Shown one piece after another: positions 6,727 to 15,649 of a DNA stretch of 64,000 nucleotides (positions are counted from its first letter, which is position 1; each line of letters opens with the position of its first letter). This DNA comes from Acidobacteriota bacterium (GTDB taxonomy: Bacteria; Acidobacteriota; Vicinamibacteria; Vicinamibacterales; UBA2999). The notes beneath the pieces were generated by a model that saw only the letters and a program-made list of their open reading frames with translations, was not told where the DNA came from and ran no database searches. Position numbers and translations under genes: made by a program. The stretch covers positions 1 through 64,000 of the forward strand of contig CAUJDN010000029.1 in assembly GCA_963169195.1 (NCBI GenBank), given 5' to 3'.

Positions 6727-9324
6727 ATGTTCGCAGCATCTTTACGGTGGACCATCTTCCTGGCGCCGGCGCTGCCGGCGGTGCTGCTGTCCAGCGAGGC
6801 GTCTGCGCCAGATCGCACGGCTGCCCAGGATCCCTCGATCGTCATCAGGGACGGGCTGATCGATGGACAGTTCCACGCCTGCCCCGACTTCGTCCTCGAC
6901 CTCGGAATCTTCGACGTGGACATCCCGGACCCGGCCTGGGCCCTGGTGGATCAGTCGAGGACCACGCGCTTCCGTTCCGCCAGCGGGCGCGTGACCCAGA
7001 GCTACTTCGCCTGGGAGGACTATCCCGACGTCCACGATTCCCATGACGTGGTCATGGAGTTTCGCGTGGACCCCGTTCCGGACCCGGCCCATCCGGACCT
7101 GCCGATTCTCTCCAATGCGGGCATCGACCACGACGGTGACCAGCCCGCCCAGAGCGATGGCCTGACCGCCAACGTGAACTACGCCCCCGACACGCTCCAC
7201 GTGGAGTGGGAAGGCGGGATCCTCGCGAACCAGTACACCGGCGACGGCCGCTTCTTCCCGAAGTGGGCCTGGCCTAGCGTGGGCGACCGCGTGTGGGTGA
7301 ACGGCTACTGGATCTTCGATTGCGGTCATCCGAGGAAGCTGCCGTTCACCGAGGCGGAGCTGGAGACCTGCCGTCTGCGGATCCTGACGTTGGGGCCGCA
7401 GTACGTCTACCCCCGCGACTGCCAGGTGGTCACGCCGAAGAGAGGCCAGCCGACGGAGATTCATCCCATCAGGGCGATCGCGTCCATGCGGCAGCAGGTG
7501 GCGACGCCCCCGGATTCGACCGGCCCGATCCCGGTCACCGCAACCGATCTCCACATCCATGGCCGCGCCGGCGTCGTGACCGACCTCCTGGAGTGCGGCG
7601 GAGGCGTGATCCTGGACGACCGCACCTGCGGAACCCGCTCGGGCCGGACACCGGTGGGTTGTGACACCGACAACCCCGCCTACCCCTGCCACGACATCGC
7701 GCTGGACCACCTCGGGGTGCCCATCGCCGAGGACTTCGAGTTCGACATCTGCACGCCGCCGCGACCGTCGCCGGGACTCTTGCTCACGAAGTGGTGGGAG
7801 GCCGGCCCAGGCGACACGGTGCCCGGGCGTCCGCCGATTCTGCAGGCCGTCCCGGTCGACGACCCGCTCGTCGATCCCTGCAACAGCCCCGAGTACGGGC
7901 CCGAGAAGATCCACGTGACGATACCGCTCGCCGGCAGCGGTGTCACGCCGGACAGCGTCTACGCGCGCCGGATCTACGCCGGCTGGACCGCGCCCTCGCG
8001 CATGCGCCGCTTCCGGGTCACGCTCGACCAGATGCGCCTCTACGACGACAACGACGGTGCCATCTGGAAGTACACGTCGGAACTGACCGGCGACGATGAC
8101 GACTGCGAGTGCTCCTTCTTCTGGATGAACGTGGACCGGGCGCCGAGCGAGTGGATCCGGCTCTCGGACCATACCTCCGGAAACATGGACGATTACCGTG
8201 GCGACCCGCAGAACGGAGGTCCAATGGACTTCGCGGGAGCGGTCTTCGACTTTCAGCTGCGCGATGGGCAGCCGTTCACCATCCGCGCCAACGGCTTCGA
8301 CGGCGGGCCGAGTGAAGGCGCCTGGGAGCCCGGACAGGACTGCCTGGACGATCACGTCGCCCACCACGACTTCGGGGACCACGTGCCGTTCGACTACTGC
8401 TTCGCGAAGCTGGCGACGGATTCCGGGTCGCCGAACCAGGACCCCTTCAAGGATCTGACCGCGACGTTCGGCCCCGATAACGGATACGGCGTGGGCACGC
8501 GAGTCCTTCCGTCAGCACCGACGGAGGTCCGGGTGCTCGAATACCGGCCCCCGCTCGGATACGTGCCCATCGACGTGGTGATGAGCGAGTACGAACTCGT
8601 CGTGACCATCGAGGAACTGCCCGCCGACAGCGACGGCGACGGACTGCTGGACACCACGGAGACGACTGGCACCAACCCAACCAACCCCCTCGATGCCGAC
8701 ACGGACGGCGACGGTCTGCAGGACGGCGAGGAAGACGCCGACCACGACGGCGGAATGGACCCCGGGGAGACCAATCCCAACGATCCCGACACCGAGGACG
8801 ACGGCCTGCTGGACGGGTGCGAGGTCAACGGCAGCAACGCGACGGATCCCCTCGATCCCGACACGGATGACGACGGGCTCACCGACGGTGCGGAGGACGC
8901 CGACCGCGACTGCGCCCGGGATGCCGGCGAGACGGATCCGACCGACCCCGACAGCGACGACGACGATCTGGGCGACGGGCTGGAGGTCGACGCGGGCACC
9001 GATCCGCTCGACGCCGACAGCGACGGCGACGGGATACCGGACGGTGAGGACGTCGAGTTCATCCAGAACATCGTCAGCGGGCTGCCCGTGACCGTCTTCA
9101 AGGGGGCCGGCAATCAGACCGCGATGCTCGCGCTCCTCGACGCGATTGAGCGGCGGATCGCTGGCGGGGACACGGCACAGGCGCTCAACCTGCTGGGAAC
9201 CCTGCGACTGCGGGTGGACGGCTGCGGGACGGCGGCCGACGGAAACGACTGGATTCAGGAGTGTGCCGCACAGGTCCGGGTCCGGTCCCTCATCGACCTG
9301 TTGGTCGCGAACCTGAGCGGCTGA
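6727..9324 (+). CDS. Secreted protein with C-terminal thrombospondin type 3-like calcium repeats
   Basis: An 865-residue protein. The ATG at 6727 follows AGGAGG, and residues 1-28 form a signal peptide. The first ~620 residues are a cysteine-containing region I do not recognise, rich in aromatic and acidic residues. From about 634 to 776 there is a run of TSP3-like repeats with the DxDxDGxxD pattern (DSDGDGLLD, DADTDGDGLQDGEED, DPDTDDDGLTDGAED, DADSDGDGIPDGEDV), which bind calcium and usually act as a stiff spacer. A ~90-residue helical tail follows, of a type often found after such repeats. Probably an extracellular protein; its function is unknown. Confidence 0.75.
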   Translation: MFAASLRWTIFLAPALPAVLLSSEASAPDRTAAQDPSIVIRDGLIDGQFHACPDFVLDLGIFDVDIPDPAWALVDQSRTTRFRSASGRVTQSYFAWEDYPDVHDSHDVVMEFRVDPVPDPAHPDLPILSNAGIDHDGDQPAQSDGLTANVNYAPDTLHVEWEGGILANQYTGDGRFFPKWAWPSVGDRVWVNGYWIFDCGHPRKLPFTEAELETCRLRILTLGPQYVYPRDCQVVTPKRGQPTEIHPIRAIASMRQQVATPPDSTGPIPVTATDLHIHGRAGVVTDLLECGGGVILDDRTCGTRSGRTPVGCDTDNPAYPCHDIALDHLGVPIAEDFEFDICTPPRPSPGLLLTKWWEAGPGDTVPGRPPILQAVPVDDPLVDPCNSPEYGPEKIHVTIPLAGSGVTPDSVYARRIYAGWTAPSRMRRFRVTLDQMRLYDDNDGAIWKYTSELTGDDDDCECSFFWMNVDRAPSEWIRLSDHTSGNMDDYRGDPQNGGPMDFAGAVFDFQLRDGQPFTIRANGFDGGPSEGAWEPGQDCLDDHVAHHDFGDHVPFDYCFAKLATDSGSPNQDPFKDLTATFGPDNGYGVGTRVLPSAPTEVRVLEYRPPLGYVPIDVVMSEYELVVTIEELPADSDGDGLLDTTETTGTNPTNPLDADTDGDGLQDGEEDADHDGGMDPGETNPNDPDTEDDGLLDGCEVNGSNATDPLDPDTDDDGLTDGAEDADRDCARDAGETDPTDPDSDDDDLGDGLEVDAGTDPLDADSDGDGIPDGEDVEFIQNIVSGLPVTVFKGAGNQTAMLALLDAIERRIAGGDTAQALNLLGTLRLRVDGCGTAADGNDWIQECAAQVRVRSLIDLLVANLSG

Positions 9325-9573: not shown

Positions 9574-11649
9574 TCAGACGGTCCCGATCACCAGCACCTC
9601 CTCGCCCAGCATGTCCGTGATCTTCACGGCCACCGTCGTCTCGCCGGGCGGGGCTGGCAGGTCGTAGCGTGCCTGCACGAATTCGGTCTTCTTCTCGGGG
9701 ATGTCCGCGAGCGCGACGGTGAACACCGCGCCTTCGTAGGCGGGGTCGATCATGATGCTGTCGACCATGGCGCGCCAGTCGTCGATGACGGGCTGCACGA
9801 CGCCGGCCTGCGAGCGAAGCCGCTCGACGATGGTCGGCGAGATGAAGTCCGTCACCTCCACGACCACCCGATCCTTCCTGCGGGCGATGCTGATCCTGGC
9901 CTTCGCGGGCGTGTGCGACAGGAAGCCGCCATGCTTCGGGTCCGACCGCAGTTCCACGACCTCGATGCGGTTGATGGCGGCCTTGCCCTTGCGCAGGCGG
10001 TTCCACTCGTCCACGGCGGCCCTGGCGGCCATCTCCATGCCCAGGCAGACCAGCAGCACGCCGCGGTCCTCGTCCGGCCGGCTGGCCAGCTCCTGCTTCA
10101 CCAGGTCGACGTCCACGGGCGACAGCGGGTGGTTGAACGGCGTGATCTTGACGAGCTGCTTCCCGCGCGTGCCGTCGAAGAACCGATCCGTGCGCGTCCG
10201 CTGCACGCCGAGGAACTCGCAGGCCAGCGCCACCGCCTCGTTGTGCTGGATCTGGAGGTCGTAGTCGTTCACCCGGTAGACGGCCAGCGACAACGGCCCG
10301 TGCGCAGGTTCCTCGCCGTCGTCGAACAGCTTCTTGTTCCGCGCACGCTCCTTCAATCCGCGCGCCTGCTCCTCAATGATCGGCTGCAGCCGCTTCATCG
10401 TCGTCTGGATGGCACCCTTGTTGATATCGCAGCCAATCCAGCGCCGCCCCAGCTTCTGCGCGACTGCAGCGGTGGTGCCGGAGCCGATGAAGCAGTCGAG
10501 GACCAAGTCGCCCGGATTCGAGTTGATCGCGAGAATTCGCTCCAGAAGCTCTGAAGGCTTCTCGGTGGGGTAGTGCGCCTCTCCCCGTCGCTGGAGGCCA
10601 CGTACCATCTTGATGTCGTCCCACCAGTCCTGTAGAGGTACACCTTTGCTCTCGTCGAGATAGCGCTTGCGGTACGGAATGCCCGACTCACTGTAAACAA
10701 GTAACCCTTTGGCCTCGAGTGCCTCCATCCGCTTCTGACTGTAGCGCCAAGCACGAGTGATGCCCTTCCACGTGAACACAGGGTTGCCTTTGATGGCGCC
10801 GCCGGGGCCAGAGATGTCGGCCTTGTTGAACCGGCGGCCCGTGCCCTCTTCGACGTTGCGATACCAAGCGTCAATTGTCGACTGAGGGAGGGGACGGAAA
10901 ACGTCATTCCACGTCGAATCGTCACTGTTCCGGTAGACGAACAGCATGTCGTGAACGGTGCCGAAATGTTTGGCCCCTTGGCCGACGTCGCTATGGGCGT
11001 CGGAACGCTTCCAGACCACTTGGTTTACGAAGCGATCTGGTCCGAAGACCTCATCCGCAACGAGCTTCAAGAAGTGCCCTCTGGTCGGGTCGCAATGCAG
11101 CCACAGCGTGCCGCTCTCGGCGAGCAACTCCTTCAACAGCAGCAGCCGCTCGTACATGAACTGCAGGTAGTTGTCGTTTGCCCAGATGTCCGTGTACTGA
11201 ATCTGCTCGCCCAGGGAGTAGGTCTCGCCGTCCACCTTCATCGAACCCTTCGGCCCGCGCAGGCTGACCTTCCGCACGTAGTCCGCGCCCGAGTCGAAGG
11301 GTGGGTCGATGTAGACGAGCTGCACCTGGCCGCGATAGCCATTGGCCAGCAGCCAGGCGAGGACGTCCTTGTTGTCGCCGTGGAACAGCAGGTTCGGCGC
11401 GTCGCGATCGGCCGACCCCTCGGCGTCGATGCGTTCGACGAGCTGCGCCGGGTAGGCCCGCACATGGCCCAGGGGGTGCTTGCCCACCCACGTCAGCATC
11501 GGCCGGCCCTTCGCGGCGGCGATCTTCACCGTCGCCGGCCTCGCCGGCTCGGCCGCAGGCTGGGCCGGAGCGGTTGCCGCCGGGCTCTCCGCCGCGGGCT
11601 TCGTTCGCGCCGCGGCGCGGGCCTTAGTCCTGACCGTCTTCTTCGCCAT
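9574..11649 (-). CDS. mod: Type III restriction-modification methyltransferase (Mod)
   Basis: A 691-residue adenine-specific DNA methyltransferase of the beta class. The catalytic DPPY-type motif comes first (VYIDPPFDSG, Asp115-Phe118) and the SAM-binding motif later (LDCFIGSGTTAA, Phe387-Thr393), the order expected of type III Mod enzymes. The target-recognition region would lie between them, and an unassigned C-terminal region follows. The ATG at 11649 has a GGAG upstream and starts inside the last 26 bases of hepT, so the two are probably translationally coupled. An upstream alternative start at 11682 is less likely. The Ala/Pro-rich N-terminal tail (residues 8-45) is unusual. It would methylate the site cut by the Res protein encoded first in the operon. 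Confidence 0.9.
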   Translation of the reverse strand: MAKKTVRTKARAAARTKPAAESPAATAPAQPAAEPARPATVKIAAAKGRPMLTWVGKHPLGHVRAYPAQLVERIDAEGSADRDAPNLLFHGDNKDVLAWLLANGYRGQVQLVYIDPPFDSGADYVRKVSLRGPKGSMKVDGETYSLGEQIQYTDIWANDNYLQFMYERLLLLKELLAESGTLWLHCDPTRGHFLKLVADEVFGPDRFVNQVVWKRSDAHSDVGQGAKHFGTVHDMLFVYRNSDDSTWNDVFRPLPQSTIDAWYRNVEEGTGRRFNKADISGPGGAIKGNPVFTWKGITRAWRYSQKRMEALEAKGLLVYSESGIPYRKRYLDESKGVPLQDWWDDIKMVRGLQRRGEAHYPTEKPSELLERILAINSNPGDLVLDCFIGSGTTAAVAQKLGRRWIGCDINKGAIQTTMKRLQPIIEEQARGLKERARNKKLFDDGEEPAHGPLSLAVYRVNDYDLQIQHNEAVALACEFLGVQRTRTDRFFDGTRGKQLVKITPFNHPLSPVDVDLVKQELASRPDEDRGVLLVCLGMEMAARAAVDEWNRLRKGKAAINRIEVVELRSDPKHGGFLSHTPAKARISIARRKDRVVVEVTDFISPTIVERLRSQAGVVQPVIDDWRAMVDSIMIDPAYEGAVFTVALADIPEKKTEFVQARYDLPAPPGETTVAVKITDMLGEEVLVIGTV

Positions 11650-11986
11650 CGGGCTCCGGAGGGGTGAGCGCGTCGAGCGCAACCATCAACTCTGGCAGAT
11701 CCTTCGACACCACCGTCCACACCGAATCCAGATCCACATCGTCGTACTCGGGGACGATGCGGTTCCGGAGCCCGATGATGGCCGGCCACTGCACCTCGCG
11801 GTGGGCCTCGCGAAAGGCCGCGGACACCCGCCTGCACGCCTCGCCGATGAGCGTGAGCTGGTAGAGCACCGCCGACTGGCGCAGATCGTCGGCGAGGAAC
11901 GCCTCCTGGTCGATGTCGGCGACGAAGCGCTGGATGGCGCGGGCCGACTGGACGATGTCGGCGATGTGCGCGAGGTCTCTATCCAT
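11624..11986 (-). CDS. hepT: HepT-like HEPN protein (DUF86) with altered RX4H motif
   Basis: A 120-residue all-helical HEPN protein of the HepT/DUF86 family, the ribonuclease toxin of HepT-MntA systems. Family features are the helix with LTLIGEACRRVS (residues 44-55) and the segment LRNRIVPEYDDVD (73-85). The catalytic motif should be RX4H; here R74 is followed by P79 instead of His. The tyrosine of the RX4HXY motif, which MntA enzymes modify with AMP, is kept (Y81). The gene overlaps the preceding Res-MNT gene by 8 bases and the following mod gene by 26, so it sits inside a restriction-modification operon. RNase activity is doubtful; it may act as a regulatory or binding partner. Confidence 0.85.
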   Translation of the reverse strand: MDRDLAHIADIVQSARAIQRFVADIDQEAFLADDLRQSAVLYQLTLIGEACRRVSAAFREAHREVQWPAIIGLRNRIVPEYDDVDLDSVWTVVSKDLPELMVALDALTPPEPDGEEDGQD

Positions 11987-14927
11987 GAATCACGCGGGCC
12001 GAGTCGAGGATCGCACGCCGGCGCATCCAGTTGCGGCTCTGTTCCACAGCCTTGCGGCTGACGAGGTCCACGTCACGGCCGACGATGGCCCGCAGATCCT
12101 CGGTCATGTCGTGCAGCGCCAGCCCGGGAGCGGAGGTGCCGGGCGCCAGGGTGTAGAGGAAGTCCACGTCGCTGTCCGGGCGGAAGTCGGACCGCAGCGC
12201 CGACCCGAAGACCTCCAGTTGCTGCACGCCCCACTTGCGGCAGAACCCGGCCAGGCGGTCGCGGTCCAGCGGGATCGGGAGGTAGAACTCCTCGCGCTCG
12301 GCGAACTGCAGGACGGGGGACATGCGATCGAAGGGCACCTGGTCGGTGGCCGTGAAGATCATCTCGTACTTCACCCGATCCGGGTTCAGGTCTTCCCATG
12401 CCCGCACGGCCATCGCCTTCCGTCCCTGCTGGCCGTCCACCGGGTCGTCCTTCGACCGCAGGCTCTTGATCTCCACGATCATCACCCGGCCAGAGCCGGG
12501 TGGGTCCTCGGCGTGCCGCGGCTTCTTCCGGATGATGAAGTCGGGTGTGTAGCGGTGCCACCGGCCGTCCTCGGTCCTGTACTCGACGAAGAAGTCGGTC
12601 TTGGCCGGGTCGGTCAGCCCGCCGGTGAAGTAGATGTCCTCCACCTCCCAGAGCTTCACGTTGAGCTGCGCGAGCAGCTTCTCGAAGAAGTCCTGCTCGG
12701 GCTTGGAATCGAAGTCGAGCGGGGAATAGTAGAAGCCGAGGTTCCGGCGGTTCCGGTCCTTCCAATCGTCCCAGCTGAGGAGGTACTGCTCCTGATCGAC
12801 GCGGTAGTTGATCTCGGTGGTGTAGACGCGGCGTCCCTTGTCGTCGGTGGCCTGGACGAAGCCCTCGGGCTTGACGAGCGCCAGCGCCACTTCGACGCGC
12901 TCCTCGTAAACGTCGTAGTGGCAGACCTGGGCTTCGATCTGTTCCGACAACCCATCGAGCGCAGGCCCTGGCACCTCGCCGCCGGGATAGAGCTCGCGGA
13001 GTTGTCCGGCCAGCTCGAGGGGATCCAGGCGATAGCGAGCGCTCAGCTCGCAGGCGGCAGCGAAGACGTCCAGGGTCTGCTCGGCGACGTCCACCGACTC
13101 GCTCGCCGACACTGGCCGCAGGGCGCGCCTCGACCCTCGCCGGGCATCCAACGTCATCGTGGTTCGCGTTCCCTGCCTGGTCTCGACCGACGGTGCGGTC
13201 AACACGAGCGGTGTGTCGCCGGCCGGCTTGCGGACAACGCGGCGCTCCGTACGCGTCAGCACGAGCGGCGGCACCTTTACCCGGCGCAGCACCAGTGTCG
13301 CCCTCCGGCGTTGCGCGTTCGCGGTCCCCAACGTGGCGATCTTCTCGCCATAGGTCTCGCCCAGCTGCCGGTCGAGCACGCCGTAGTTCTCTTCCGACAG
13401 GTAGATCCGGGCCTTGTGCGTGTTGCCGGGCACCTGCCGGAGGCAGCGCGTGGCCGCCTGCAGCACGAAGTTGTTCGACGATTTCAGCTTGCGCGCCAGC
13501 GCGCACGCGAACAGGCTCGGGCAGTTCCAGCCTTCCGTGCCCTTGTTCACCAGCAGGATGACGCGCTCGGGCTGGGCGGGATCGTTGAGGCGGTTGAAGG
13601 CGTCCTCGTCGCGGGCCTTCGTCAAGGCCTGGTCCGAGGTGTTCACCAGCACCAGGCTGGGGCTCAGGCCGAGACGGGCCAGCGTGGCGTCGACGACCGG
13701 CCGCATCGCCGCCAGGTCGTCGGTTTGCGGAAAGTAGATGGCCAGCCGTGCCGGCGCCCCGTTCGGCAGGTGGACGTCGCGGTAGTCGCGGAAGAAGCCC
13801 TCGACCACCTGCGCGACGTACTCCTCGGTGTCGACCGACCCGAACGTCACGATGTTGTCGGAGACGTCCTTGAGGATGCCCTCGCGGATGCCCTCCGACA
13901 GCCCGTACCAGATGACGACGTCCAGCAGCGGCTGGCGATTGAAGTAGGGCGTGCCGGTCGTGTTGACGACGACGATGAGATTCGTCTGCGCGTGGAGGTA
14001 GTCCACGGTCTTGCGGACCTTCTTCAGCTCGGTGTCCATCGACTGCCCGTAGGTGTGATGGGCCTCGTCCGAGAACACCGCGAGGTGAGGGAGGGCGGCA
14101 ATGGCCTGCAGGCGGCGGTTGGCCACCTCCTGTCGGGCCTCGTCCAGCTTGAGGGGCGAGAGCAGCGGCCCGATGTCCGCCTTTCGCACCGTCTCCTTCT
14201 GGATGCGGATCTTCTCGGTGTTGGTGACGACGACGTTGAAGAGCGAGCCCGGGATCACCGGAATCGTGCTCTCGCCATCGCGTGTGAAGGTGAATTTCAC
14301 CGAGGCGGCAAACGTCTTGTGGAAGCGCGGCGGCAGGATGCGGTCGTAGGGCGCCGACAGCAGTTCGCGGAGCGATTCGAGAATCACCTTGCCGGGCGCG
14401 AAGACGAGCGCGTTCTGGACGAAGTCGCCCTCCGGGTGCTCGTCCGCCATGGCGAACTCGGTGGCGATGATGGCGGCGATGAGGATGGTCTTGCCCGCGC
14501 CCATGGCGAGGGCCATGATGTAGCTCGGATAGTCGAGCGTCAGCGTTTCGCGCAGGGCCTCCAGCTTGTACCGCTTCACCTGCGCATCGTCTGTCCGGAC
14601 GCGGTCGAGAAGGCCGTCGGTCCCGACATCAAGGGCCAGATTCTTCAGATCGGGGTGAGACAGCCCCAGGCCATCGAGGAGCTGGGCATTGTTGGGGAAG
14701 GCGTCGCGATACAGATCCAGCATCCCGGGCGTGCCGCGCACGATGCGGAGGTACCAGTACGTCTCGAGCGCACGCAGTTGGGGCGTTCGAAGGAATCGAA
14801 CCTGCCCCGAATCGTCCGATCCCGCGGCGAATTCGAGGATCTCCGCGACGGCCGGAAACGTGTCGGAAGGGTAGTGCGCCGCGCGCCAGGCATCGATTTC
14901 TGCGGCCAGCCTCTCGTGCAGCGTCAC
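11979..14927 (-). CDS. res: Type III restriction Res subunit with fused C-terminal MntA-like nucleotidyltransferase
   Basis: A 982-residue protein. The N-terminal two thirds is a superfamily 2 helicase: Walker A AMGAGKT (K146), DEAH box FSDEAHHTYG (287-290), TGTPYFNR, and a C-terminal helicase half ending near NFVLQAATRCLRQVPG. A PD-(D/E)XK nuclease follows (YTPDFII, then MIVEIKS). Residues ~870-982 form a minimal nucleotidyltransferase: G908-S909, then S919-D920-x-D922 (FGSALRSDFRPDSDVDF) and VDLV, all active-site acids present. This is the MntA antitoxin fold, here in frame with Res. A TAGAAT -10-like box ends 6 bases before the GTG start, suggesting a leaderless transcript. It would cut DNA with Mod and may AMPylate the adjacent HepT. 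Confidence 0.88.
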   Translation of the reverse strand: MTLHERLAAEIDAWRAAHYPSDTFPAVAEILEFAAGSDDSGQVRFLRTPQLRALETYWYLRIVRGTPGMLDLYRDAFPNNAQLLDGLGLSHPDLKNLALDVGTDGLLDRVRTDDAQVKRYKLEALRETLTLDYPSYIMALAMGAGKTILIAAIIATEFAMADEHPEGDFVQNALVFAPGKVILESLRELLSAPYDRILPPRFHKTFAASVKFTFTRDGESTIPVIPGSLFNVVVTNTEKIRIQKETVRKADIGPLLSPLKLDEARQEVANRRLQAIAALPHLAVFSDEAHHTYGQSMDTELKKVRKTVDYLHAQTNLIVVVNTTGTPYFNRQPLLDVVIWYGLSEGIREGILKDVSDNIVTFGSVDTEEYVAQVVEGFFRDYRDVHLPNGAPARLAIYFPQTDDLAAMRPVVDATLARLGLSPSLVLVNTSDQALTKARDEDAFNRLNDPAQPERVILLVNKGTEGWNCPSLFACALARKLKSSNNFVLQAATRCLRQVPGNTHKARIYLSEENYGVLDRQLGETYGEKIATLGTANAQRRRATLVLRRVKVPPLVLTRTERRVVRKPAGDTPLVLTAPSVETRQGTRTTMTLDARRGSRRALRPVSASESVDVAEQTLDVFAAACELSARYRLDPLELAGQLRELYPGGEVPGPALDGLSEQIEAQVCHYDVYEERVEVALALVKPEGFVQATDDKGRRVYTTEINYRVDQEQYLLSWDDWKDRNRRNLGFYYSPLDFDSKPEQDFFEKLLAQLNVKLWEVEDIYFTGGLTDPAKTDFFVEYRTEDGRWHRYTPDFIIRKKPRHAEDPPGSGRVMIVEIKSLRSKDDPVDGQQGRKAMAVRAWEDLNPDRVKYEMIFTATDQVPFDRMSPVLQFAEREEFYLPIPLDRDRLAGFCRKWGVQQLEVFGSALRSDFRPDSDVDFLYTLAPGTSAPGLALHDMTEDLRAIVGRDVDLVSRKAVEQSRNWMRRRAILDSARVIHG

Positions 14928-14965
14928 CGGGGTATTCTACGGTAGCCAGCCATGGGAGAATCCCG

Positions 14966-15649
14966 ATGAATCCTTCGTGCGCCCTTCGTGTTCCTCGTGG
15001 TCTTCGTGGTTTCCTTCTCGCCTGTTGCAGCGTGGCGGCGGTCACCCTCGCCGCACAGACCGGGCCGCCGGTGGATCCGAAGGCCACGCGCCAGGCCGAT
15101 CTCGTGGAGCTGGTGAAGCTGGATCCCACCATCGAGCTCGACATCCGCTATGCGGGCACGAACAACTTCCTGGGCGAGCCGGTGTATCCCGAGGCGCGTG
15201 CGTTTCTCCAGCGGCCCGCGGCCGAGGCGCTGCTGGCGGCACACAAGGATCTGGCCCGGCACGGCTACGGCCTGCTCATCCACGACGGCTATCGCCCCTG
15301 GGCCATCACGAAGCTGTTCTGGGACATGACCAGCGGAGCGCAGCGCGAGTTCGTCGCGGACCCGAAGAGCGGATCGAAGCACAATCGCGGCTGCGCCGTG
15401 GACCTGACGCTGTACGACCTGGCGCTGGGGACGGCTGTCGAGATGCCGGGCGGGTACGACGAGATGACGCGCCGCTCGTACCCGGACTACCTGGGCGGAC
15501 CTCCCGAAGCGCGCGGCAAGCGGGACCTGCTGCGCCAGGTGATGGAGCGCCACGGCTTCACCGTGGAGCCGAACGAGTGGTGGCACTTCAACTACCGGGA
15601 GTGGGAGCAGTATCCCATCCTCGACATCCCCTTCTCGGCCATCCGCTGA
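14966..15649 (+). CDS. Secreted D-Ala-D-Ala dipeptidase (VanX/M15D family)
   Basis: A 227-residue zinc dipeptidase. The metal site is complete: SKHNRGCAVD gives His139 and Asp146, and EWWHF gives catalytic Glu204 and ligand His207. The early segment LDIRYAGTNNFLG and the stretch HDGYRPWAITKLF are also family hallmarks. A signal peptide covers residues 1-29, so it acts in the periplasm on peptidoglycan-derived D-Ala-D-Ala, more likely in cell-wall recycling than vancomycin resistance, since no vanHA genes are near. The ATG follows GGGAG. The DNA coding the signal peptide contains a CTTCGTG-type repeat seen elsewhere in the window. A tandem repeat tract follows the stop. Confidence 0.88.
   Translation: MNPSCALRVPRGLRGFLLACCSVAAVTLAAQTGPPVDPKATRQADLVELVKLDPTIELDIRYAGTNNFLGEPVYPEARAFLQRPAAEALLAAHKDLARHGYGLLIHDGYRPWAITKLFWDMTSGAQREFVADPKSGSKHNRGCAVDLTLYDLALGTAVEMPGGYDEMTRRSYPDYLGGPPEARGKRDLLRQVMERHGFTVEPNEWWHFNYREWEQYPILDIPFSAIR

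What the first reader, a model, noticed from the sequence alone, without database searches (positions are those of the whole stretch)
9574..14927. Restriction-modification operon with an embedded HepT-MntA module: Res-MNT fusion, HepT, Mod
The sequence shows a type III Res helicase-nuclease whose frame runs straight into a complete minimal nucleotidyltransferase (G908-S909, D920, D922), then an 8-base overlap with a HepT gene, then a 26-base overlap with Mod. MntA enzymes are known to AMPylate HepT RNase toxins as antitoxins. Having the antitoxin enzyme as a domain of the restriction subunit, with the toxin gene between res and mod, suggests (inference) that loss of restriction capacity or Res turnover could be sensed by HepT, or that AMPylation tunes the nuclease. 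I do not know of a described system with this layout.
Basis: partly seen in the sequence, partly recalled or inferred. Interest (0 to 1): 0.9.

Follow-up and report, generated by a model that had tools for sequence, protein, structure and literature searches.

The report
Restriction enzyme fused to toxin-silencing enzyme
In this soil-type acidobacterium, and in scattered other bacteria, the DNA-cutting part of a phage-defence system carries on its end the enzyme that normally keeps a cell-poisoning RNase switched off, and the RNase gene follows directly, which suggests that the cell's safety is tied to keeping its defence enzyme, although the RNase in this particular genome has lost a residue it probably needs.

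Summary
On the minus strand lie a 982-aa Res (SF2 helicase plus PD-(D/E)XK nuclease) ending in an intact minimal nucleotidyltransferase (MNT) domain, then hepT (8-nt overlap), then mod (26-nt overlap). The fusion is real and recurrent. All five genomes of the class that carry this Res (of 193 searched) have a C-terminal MNT fusion. Four are the window's type (Res-MNT + HepT + Mod) and one is a second type (a different MNT, followed by a PF05168 HEPN gene). Both types also occur outside the Acidobacteria, and two loci keep mntA and hepT as separate genes in the same res-mod gap. A HEPN gene follows the MNT in all 11 distinct loci. Most other relatives have no MNT; their gap is empty or holds Fic, VapBC-like or DUF1828 cargo. 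The likeliest reading is a type VII toxin-antitoxin module embedded in a type III-like R-M operon, its antitoxin tethered to Res as a guard or addiction device. Such embedding is already described; I found no description of the antitoxin-Res fusion. No activity was tested.

The parts
11979..14927 (-). res-mnt fusion gene, 982 aa (GTG start): type III-like Res with a C-terminal minimal nucleotidyltransferase
13293..14570 (-). SF2 helicase region of Res (about residues 120-545): Walker A MGAGKT 142-147, DEAH 287-290, TTGTP 323-327, all invariant or nearly invariant in the family
   Evidence: ResIII hit; conserved columns in 38 relatives; AF2 and Foldseek
12297..12704 (-). PD-(D/E)XK nuclease region of Res (about residues 742-877): D796, E819, K821 invariant
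   Evidence: invariant columns; model
11982..12263 (-). MNT (MntA-like) nucleotidyltransferase domain, residues 889-982
   Evidence: Pfam NTP_transf_2; PADLOC PDC-S09 E 9e-22; NCBIfam MntA model 30.5 bits, cut-off 60; AF2 discrete domain
12162..12206 (-). GSX10DXD adenylyltransferase motif G908-S909...D920-V-D922, intact
11979..11986 (-). 8-nt overlap of res-mnt stop and hepT start, suggesting translational coupling (inference)
11624..11986 (-). hepT, 120 aa, HEPN RNase toxin family PF01934
   Evidence: E 2.1e-24
11744..11767 (-). HepT motif R74-x4-P79-x-Y81: Arg and the AMP-acceptor Tyr kept, catalytic His replaced by Pro
11624..11649 (-). 26-nt overlap of hepT end and mod start
9574..11649 (-). 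mod, 691 aa, beta-class amino-methyltransferase (DPPF before FIGSG), nearest solved relative EcoP15I Mod

Best explanation
A type III-like restriction-modification operon (res, then mod) has taken up a type VII toxin-antitoxin module (mntA-hepT) between its two genes, and the antitoxin enzyme has become the C-terminal domain of Res. Shown here: the layout, intact Res, Mod and MNT motifs, and recurrence of the layout. Inferred from the known chemistry of MntA/HepT: the Res-borne MNT transfers AMP to Tyr81 of HepT as it is made and so silences it. The consequence of the fusion (inferred) is that silencing depends on full-length Res, so a cell that loses or truncates Res, or whose Res is sequestered or destroyed by a phage, cannot silence newly made HepT and stops growing. 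The module would thus be a guard or addiction device for the restriction subunit, comparable in outcome to PrrC with EcoprrI. In the window's own copy HepT has lost the catalytic His, so this copy may be a disarmed version, or toxic without catalysis.
For: Fused Res-MNT + HepT + Mod in the window, L036, L037, L038 and L050; fused Res-MNT of a second kind + PF05168 HEPN in L043, L049, L051 and L056 (Mod follows in three; the L051 contig ends before it); separate mntA and hepT in the same gap in L042 and L048. In the class, 5 of 5 genomes with this Res (of 193 searched) carry a fusion. Gene order is antitoxin first, toxin second, with overlapping genes, as in solo MNT-HEPN modules. The MNT motif GSX10DXD and acceptor Tyr are intact. 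MntA adenylylates the Tyr of RX4HXY in HepT (PMC7641770; PMC11586414). No conserved internal start, so the antitoxin is predicted to be made only as part of Res. The MNT is a discrete domain after the nuclease. PrrC in EcoprrI is the accepted precedent of an RNase held by an R-M system.
Against: HepT of the window has Pro for the catalytic His. AMPylation is covalent, so losing Res would not wake HepT that is already modified; only new HepT or a de-AMPylating step could act. Translational coupling means that an early frameshift in res would also lower HepT synthesis. The res-mod gap also accepts many unrelated cargo genes, so residence there alone does not show coupling. No AMPylation, toxicity or phage test exists for any member.
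Confidence: 0.45

Rival explanations
1. Passive cargo: the res-mod gap is an insertion slot for selfish toxin-antitoxin and other small modules. MNT-HEPN pairs land there like Fic or VapBC, and loss of the res stop codon fused the first gene to Res with little functional consequence.
For: Of about 65 relatives with complete Res and Mod downstream, roughly half have direct adjacency and half a gap. Gap cargo includes Fic (about 10 loci), DUF6978+DUF1828 (5), MazE/PIN (about 5), DUF3800, XRE-IrrE and AAA proteins. Two loci keep mntA unfused (L042, L048). DarTG2 sits likewise between hsdS and hsdR (PMC12255303).
Against: Only the MNT was found fused to Res. Two different MNT/HEPN classes are fused at the same place and kept without stops across phyla. 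All 5 genomes of the class with this Res have a fusion.
Confidence: 0.3
2. Domesticated modifier: the former toxin is now a non-catalytic partner or substrate-binding subunit, and the Res-borne MNT nucleotidylates Res, Mod or a phage factor to adjust restriction.
For: The window HepT lacks the catalytic His but keeps Arg and the acceptor Tyr. Anantharaman et al. propose that HEPN domains lacking RNase residues act as substrate-binding or regulatory partners of MNTs (PMC3710099).
Against: All six MNT-HepT relatives in the same operon layout keep the His, so loss of catalysis is not a feature of the architecture. No candidate target is known.
Confidence: 0.15
3. Decaying remnant in this genome only: the toxin was inactivated by mutation and the fused MNT is on the way out, so the window copy is simply a working R-M system with a dead appendage.
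For: H to P at the active site in the window alone; other genomes of the genus searched lack this Res.
Against: MNT motif, acceptor Tyr, reading frames and overlaps are intact; no stop or frameshift in about 2.9 kb. HEPN proteins without the motif can still be toxic (statement in PMC3710099). In Legionella the RX4HXY motif is argued not to be the catalytic site (PMC11586414).
Confidence: 0.25
4. Frame or assembly artefact: Res and MNT are separate in the organism.
For: GC-rich DNA gives long spurious open frames; for example a solo MNT elsewhere in this genome lies in a 975-aa open frame. The window is from a draft genome.
Against: Same fusion through the same junction in independent assemblies from several phyla; no alternative conserved start.
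Confidence: 0.02

Closest known systems
MntA-HepT (HEPN-MNT) type VII toxin-antitoxin system (Shewanella SO_3165/SO_3166, Legionella HEPN-MNT)
   Same: MNT with GSX10DXD followed by an overlapping HepT gene with Arg and acceptor Tyr; Pfam NTP_transf_2 and HepT-like PF01934
   Different: The antitoxin is the C-terminal domain of a restriction subunit; scores are below the NCBIfam equivalog cut-offs (30.5 and 42.5 against 60); the window HepT has P for the catalytic H
EcoprrI-PrrC (HEPN anticodon nuclease inside a type Ic R-M locus)
   Same: A HEPN RNase encoded inside an R-M operon and, by inference, kept quiet by it
   Different: PrrC is held by a non-covalent R-M complex and its own ABC ATPase domain; here silencing would be by AMPylation from a domain of Res
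Type III restriction-modification (EcoP15I and relatives)
   Same: Helicase-nuclease Res plus beta-class Mod, two-gene core; Mod matches EcoP15I Mod by sequence, Res matches EcoP15I Res by fold
   Different: res precedes mod, no detectable sequence match of Res to EcoP15I Res, extra module between the genes
PADLOC candidates PDC-S09 (MNT) and PDC-M05 (nucleotidyltransferase + HEPN), from the 'guilt-by-embedding' survey
   Same: The MNT domain matches PDC-S09 profiles (E 9e-22); that survey (known to me only through PMC12988326) found such genes embedded within defence systems
   Different: Listed as stand-alone single- or two-gene candidates; the HepT matched no PADLOC model
[quoted passage not shown]
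   Same: Toxin-antitoxin module nested between R-M genes
   Different: Type I R-M, a different toxin family (DarT), antitoxin not fused to an R-M subunit

Membership tests
Type VII toxin-antitoxin MntA-HepT | Antitoxin with MNT fold and GSX10DXD motif | tested here: met
Type VII toxin-antitoxin MntA-HepT | Toxin of HEPN/HepT family (PF01934) encoded directly downstream | tested here: met
Type VII toxin-antitoxin MntA-HepT | RX4HXY motif in the toxin | tested here: not met
   window has R74-x4-P79-x-Y81; met in all six relatives with the same module
Type VII toxin-antitoxin MntA-HepT | Toxicity of HepT and its neutralisation by AMPylation | not testable with these tools
   needs expression and mass spectrometry
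Type VII toxin-antitoxin MntA-HepT | Stand-alone two-gene module | tested here: not met
   MNT is a domain of Res; mntA is a separate gene in L042 and L048
Type III restriction-modification | Res: SF2 helicase motifs plus C-terminal PD-(D/E)XK | tested here: met
Type III restriction-modification | Mod: beta-class amino-methyltransferase related to EcoP15I Mod | tested here: met
   (4zcf_A, E 4.7e-19)
Type III restriction-modification | Res related to characterised type III Res | tested here: inconclusive
   no PDB sequence match for the Res part; fold match to EcoP15I Res 4zcf_C E 3.7e-8, TM 0.40 by target, but RadD and other SF2 enzymes rank equally or higher
Type III restriction-modification | Cleavage needing two inversely oriented sites, Mod2Res1 complex | not testable with these tools
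   biochemistry
PrrC-type R-M guardian | HEPN RNase gene inside an R-M operon | tested here: met
PrrC-type R-M guardian | ABC-ATPase-HEPN protein | tested here: not met
   HepT is a 120-aa single domain
PrrC-type R-M guardian | RNase released when the R-M enzyme is inhibited | not testable with these tools
   phage and anti-restriction experiment

The most novel reading that the evidence does not exclude
Full-length Res is needed to AMPylate and silence a co-translated RNase toxin, so restriction loss or inhibition is converted into growth arrest: Res carries its own covalent integrity check. This solution arose at least twice, with two different MNT/HEPN pairs, in one R-M family.
Probability: 0.35. 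Interest if true: 0.8.

Novelty: new variant of a known kind. Interest (0 to 1): 0.62.

Why it matters
It would join two defence layers, DNA restriction and RNase-driven growth arrest, in one polypeptide through a covalent modification. It would give a concrete, testable answer to how R-M systems resist loss and phage anti-restriction. The recurrence of two MNT/HEPN classes in the same slot, beside Fic (another AMPylating family) in about ten relatives, points to a res-mod slot in this R-M family that collects regulatory or toxin cargo and can be mined for new systems.

Tried and rejected
Frame artefact: rejected (same junction in independent assemblies). Separate internal start at Met869 for a free MNT: no support. 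An early thought that C52 of the same genome holds a second Res-MNT (975-aa frame): rejected, it is a solo MntA-HepT pair in a long spurious frame. One single origin for all fusions: the AU test does not firmly reject it (p 0.07, 57 log units worse), but the two MNT/HEPN classes differ, so two fusions are the minimum; F1 as one clade (p 0.62) and F2 as one clade (p 0.25) are not rejected. Promoter and terminator scan, Rfam and tRNA scans gave nothing useful. Fold search of the whole model was dominated by generic SF2 helicases. AF2 of the second fusion type was of low confidence. One relative in viral contigs, unfused. No paper found describing MNT fused to Res; the library lacks subscription papers and bioRxiv, and the Payne et al. 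2024 preprint on embedding could not be read.

Full report
Observation. On the minus strand of the window three genes overlap: res-mnt (14927..11979, GTG start, 982 aa), hepT (11986..11624, 120 aa) and mod (11649..9574, 691 aa), with overlaps of 8 and 26 nt. Pfam identifies ResIII at residues 120-327 and NTP_transf_2 at 895-979 of the first protein, HepT-like PF01934 in the second and N6_N4_Mtase in the third. The window is contig C29 of a 5.0-Mb draft genome. Its nearest relatives carrying the same operon are MAGs labelled Acidobacteria.

Integrity of the parts. Across 38 Res sequences the helicase motifs (MGAGKT 142-147, DEAH 287-290, TTGTP 323-327) and the nuclease residues D796, E819, K821 are invariant or nearly so and present in the window. 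At near-invariant columns the window deviates at 4 of 157 (Res) and 5 of 141 (Mod), and none of these is one of those Res motif residues. The MNT motif GSX10DXD is intact. HepT is not intact by its family standard. The RX4HXY motif, where H belongs to the RNase site and Y receives AMP in Shewanella (PMC7641770), reads R74-NRIV-P79-E-Y81. All six relatives with the same module keep H, and among 27 alignable other HepTs 26 have H and one has Y. The toxin of this copy may therefore be catalytically dead. Two cautions: HEPN proteins without the motif have been scored as toxic (statement in PMC3710099), and in Legionella the motif is argued not to be the catalytic site (PMC11586414).

Is the fusion real? 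The same protein, matched through the junction to the last residues, occurs in independent assemblies: G317/L036, G028/L038 and L037 (same coordinates and identity as G432/L116) at about 62% identity, and L050 (Actinobacteria MAG) at 59%. AlphaFold2 gives a model with mean pLDDT 83.6 and pTM 0.62 in which 889-981 is a well-predicted separate alpha/beta domain after the nuclease. No start-capable codon near the junction is conserved; L050 has none, and the window's Met869 belongs to the last helix of Res and lacks a Shine-Dalgarno-like sequence. So the antitoxin is predicted to exist only as part of Res.

How general is it? I scanned GTDB genomes with six peptides of the window Res (80 loci), then searched their open frames with profiles for Res, MNT, HepT and Mod. 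Three arrangements hold an MNT-HEPN module in the res-mod gap. (F1) Res-MNT fused, HepT (PF01934), Mod: window, L036, L037, L038, L050. (S) Res, separate MNT, HepT, Mod: L042 (Methylomirabilis, four-nt overlap of res and mnt) and L048 (Armatimonadota). (F2) Res fused to a different MNT, then a PF05168 HEPN gene, then Mod: L043, L049, L056, and L051 whose contig ends before mod. A HEPN gene follows in all 11 cases. In the window's class 5 of 193 genomes have this Res and all five carry a fusion, four F1 and one F2. In the wider phylum sample three further genomes have unfused Res. About half of the relatives with complete Res and Mod have mod directly after res. The other half have a gap, and besides MNT-HEPN it holds Fic proteins (about 10 loci), DUF6978 with DUF1828 (5), MazE/PIN pairs (about 5), DUF3800, XRE-IrrE or AAA proteins. 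The sample is biased towards Res sharing those six peptides, so these are not population frequencies.

Origins. In a Res tree the window groups with L036, L037 and L038 (SH-aLRT 99), F2 members L043, L049 and L051 group together (100), and presence of the module needs at least five changes. Topology tests do not reject one clade for F1 (p 0.62) or for F2 (p 0.25), and only marginally disfavour one clade for all fusions (p 0.07). Because F1 and F2 carry different MNT and HEPN families, at least two independent fusions are the minimum reading. F1 MNTs sit among solo acidobacterial MNTs (nearest L013 and L028, both followed by solo hepT), which supports recruitment of an ordinary toxin-antitoxin pair.

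Mechanism. The best-supported reading is a type VII toxin-antitoxin module embedded in a type III-like R-M operon, with the antitoxin enzyme tethered to Res. Shown: layout, motif integrity, recurrence, antitoxin-first order, no free antitoxin predicted. Known from the family: MntA adenylylates HepT at the Tyr next to the RNase motif. Inferred: silencing depends on full-length Res, so loss, truncation or inhibition of Res leaves newly made HepT active. That would guard restriction as PrrC guards EcoprrI and would punish loss of res. Weak points: AMPylation is stable, translational coupling limits HepT synthesis when res is broken early, and the local HepT lacks its His. The rivals are passive cargo in a permissive gap, a domesticated modifier, and decay of this copy; I give them 0.3, 0.15 and 0.25 (they overlap with each other and with the main reading, so they do not sum to one).

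Known and new. HEPN genes in R-M operons as a second, PrrC-like line were proposed in 2013, including clustering of PF05168 HEPN genes with R-M operons and fusions of HEPN domains (not MNT) to R-M helicases and nucleases (PMC3710099). MNT genes (PDC-S09) and nucleotidyltransferase-HEPN pairs (PDC-M05) are candidates from a 'guilt-by-embedding' survey (cited in PMC12988326), and the window MNT matches PDC-S09. DarTG2 sits between hsdS and hsdR (PMC12255303). MNT-HEPN fusions are reported as auxiliary effectors beside BREX (PMC12839542). I found no description of an antitoxin nucleotidyltransferase fused to a restriction subunit, within a library limited to open papers. I therefore rate it a new variant of a known kind. 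The R-M type itself is 'type III-like': Mod matches EcoP15I Mod, but Res has only a fold-level match shared with other SF2 enzymes, and res precedes mod.

Noticed in passing
L040, L068, L085, L105, L108 (res-mod gap): A conserved two-gene cargo DUF6978 + DUF1828 recurs between res and mod in Nitrospirota, Chloroflexota and WOR-3 relatives; looks like a further undescribed module of this slot.
   Followed up: partly
L041, L046, L054, L062, L072, L077, L078, L091, L103, L110 (mostly res-mod gap): Fic-domain proteins, another AMPylating family, are the commonest cargo of the slot, sometimes together with a MazE/PIN pair.
   Followed up: partly
G000 contigs C52 and C85 (L001, L002): The same genome has at least two stand-alone MntA-HepT pairs, and both of their HepTs keep the RX4HXY histidine; possible cross-talk with the Res-borne MNT.
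   Followed up: no
window 14966-15649 (+): A protein that looks like a VanX/DdpX-type D-Ala-D-Ala dipeptidase is divergent from res-mnt with only about 38 bp between the two starts; the res promoter must lie in or near that gap (no sigma-70-like match found).
   Followed up: no
window 6727-9324 (+): Secreted-looking 865-aa protein with a run of DxDxDG-type calcium-binding repeats downstream of mod, convergent to it.
   Followed up: no
window 11913-14945 (+): A 1010-aa open frame lies antisense to res-mnt; in such GC-rich DNA this is most likely a shadow frame, a reminder that frame openness alone is weak evidence here.
   Followed up: no
L092 / L011 (Aminicenantes): A Res relative carries an in-frame TAA that splits it at about residue 750, separating the nuclease part.
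   Followed up: no
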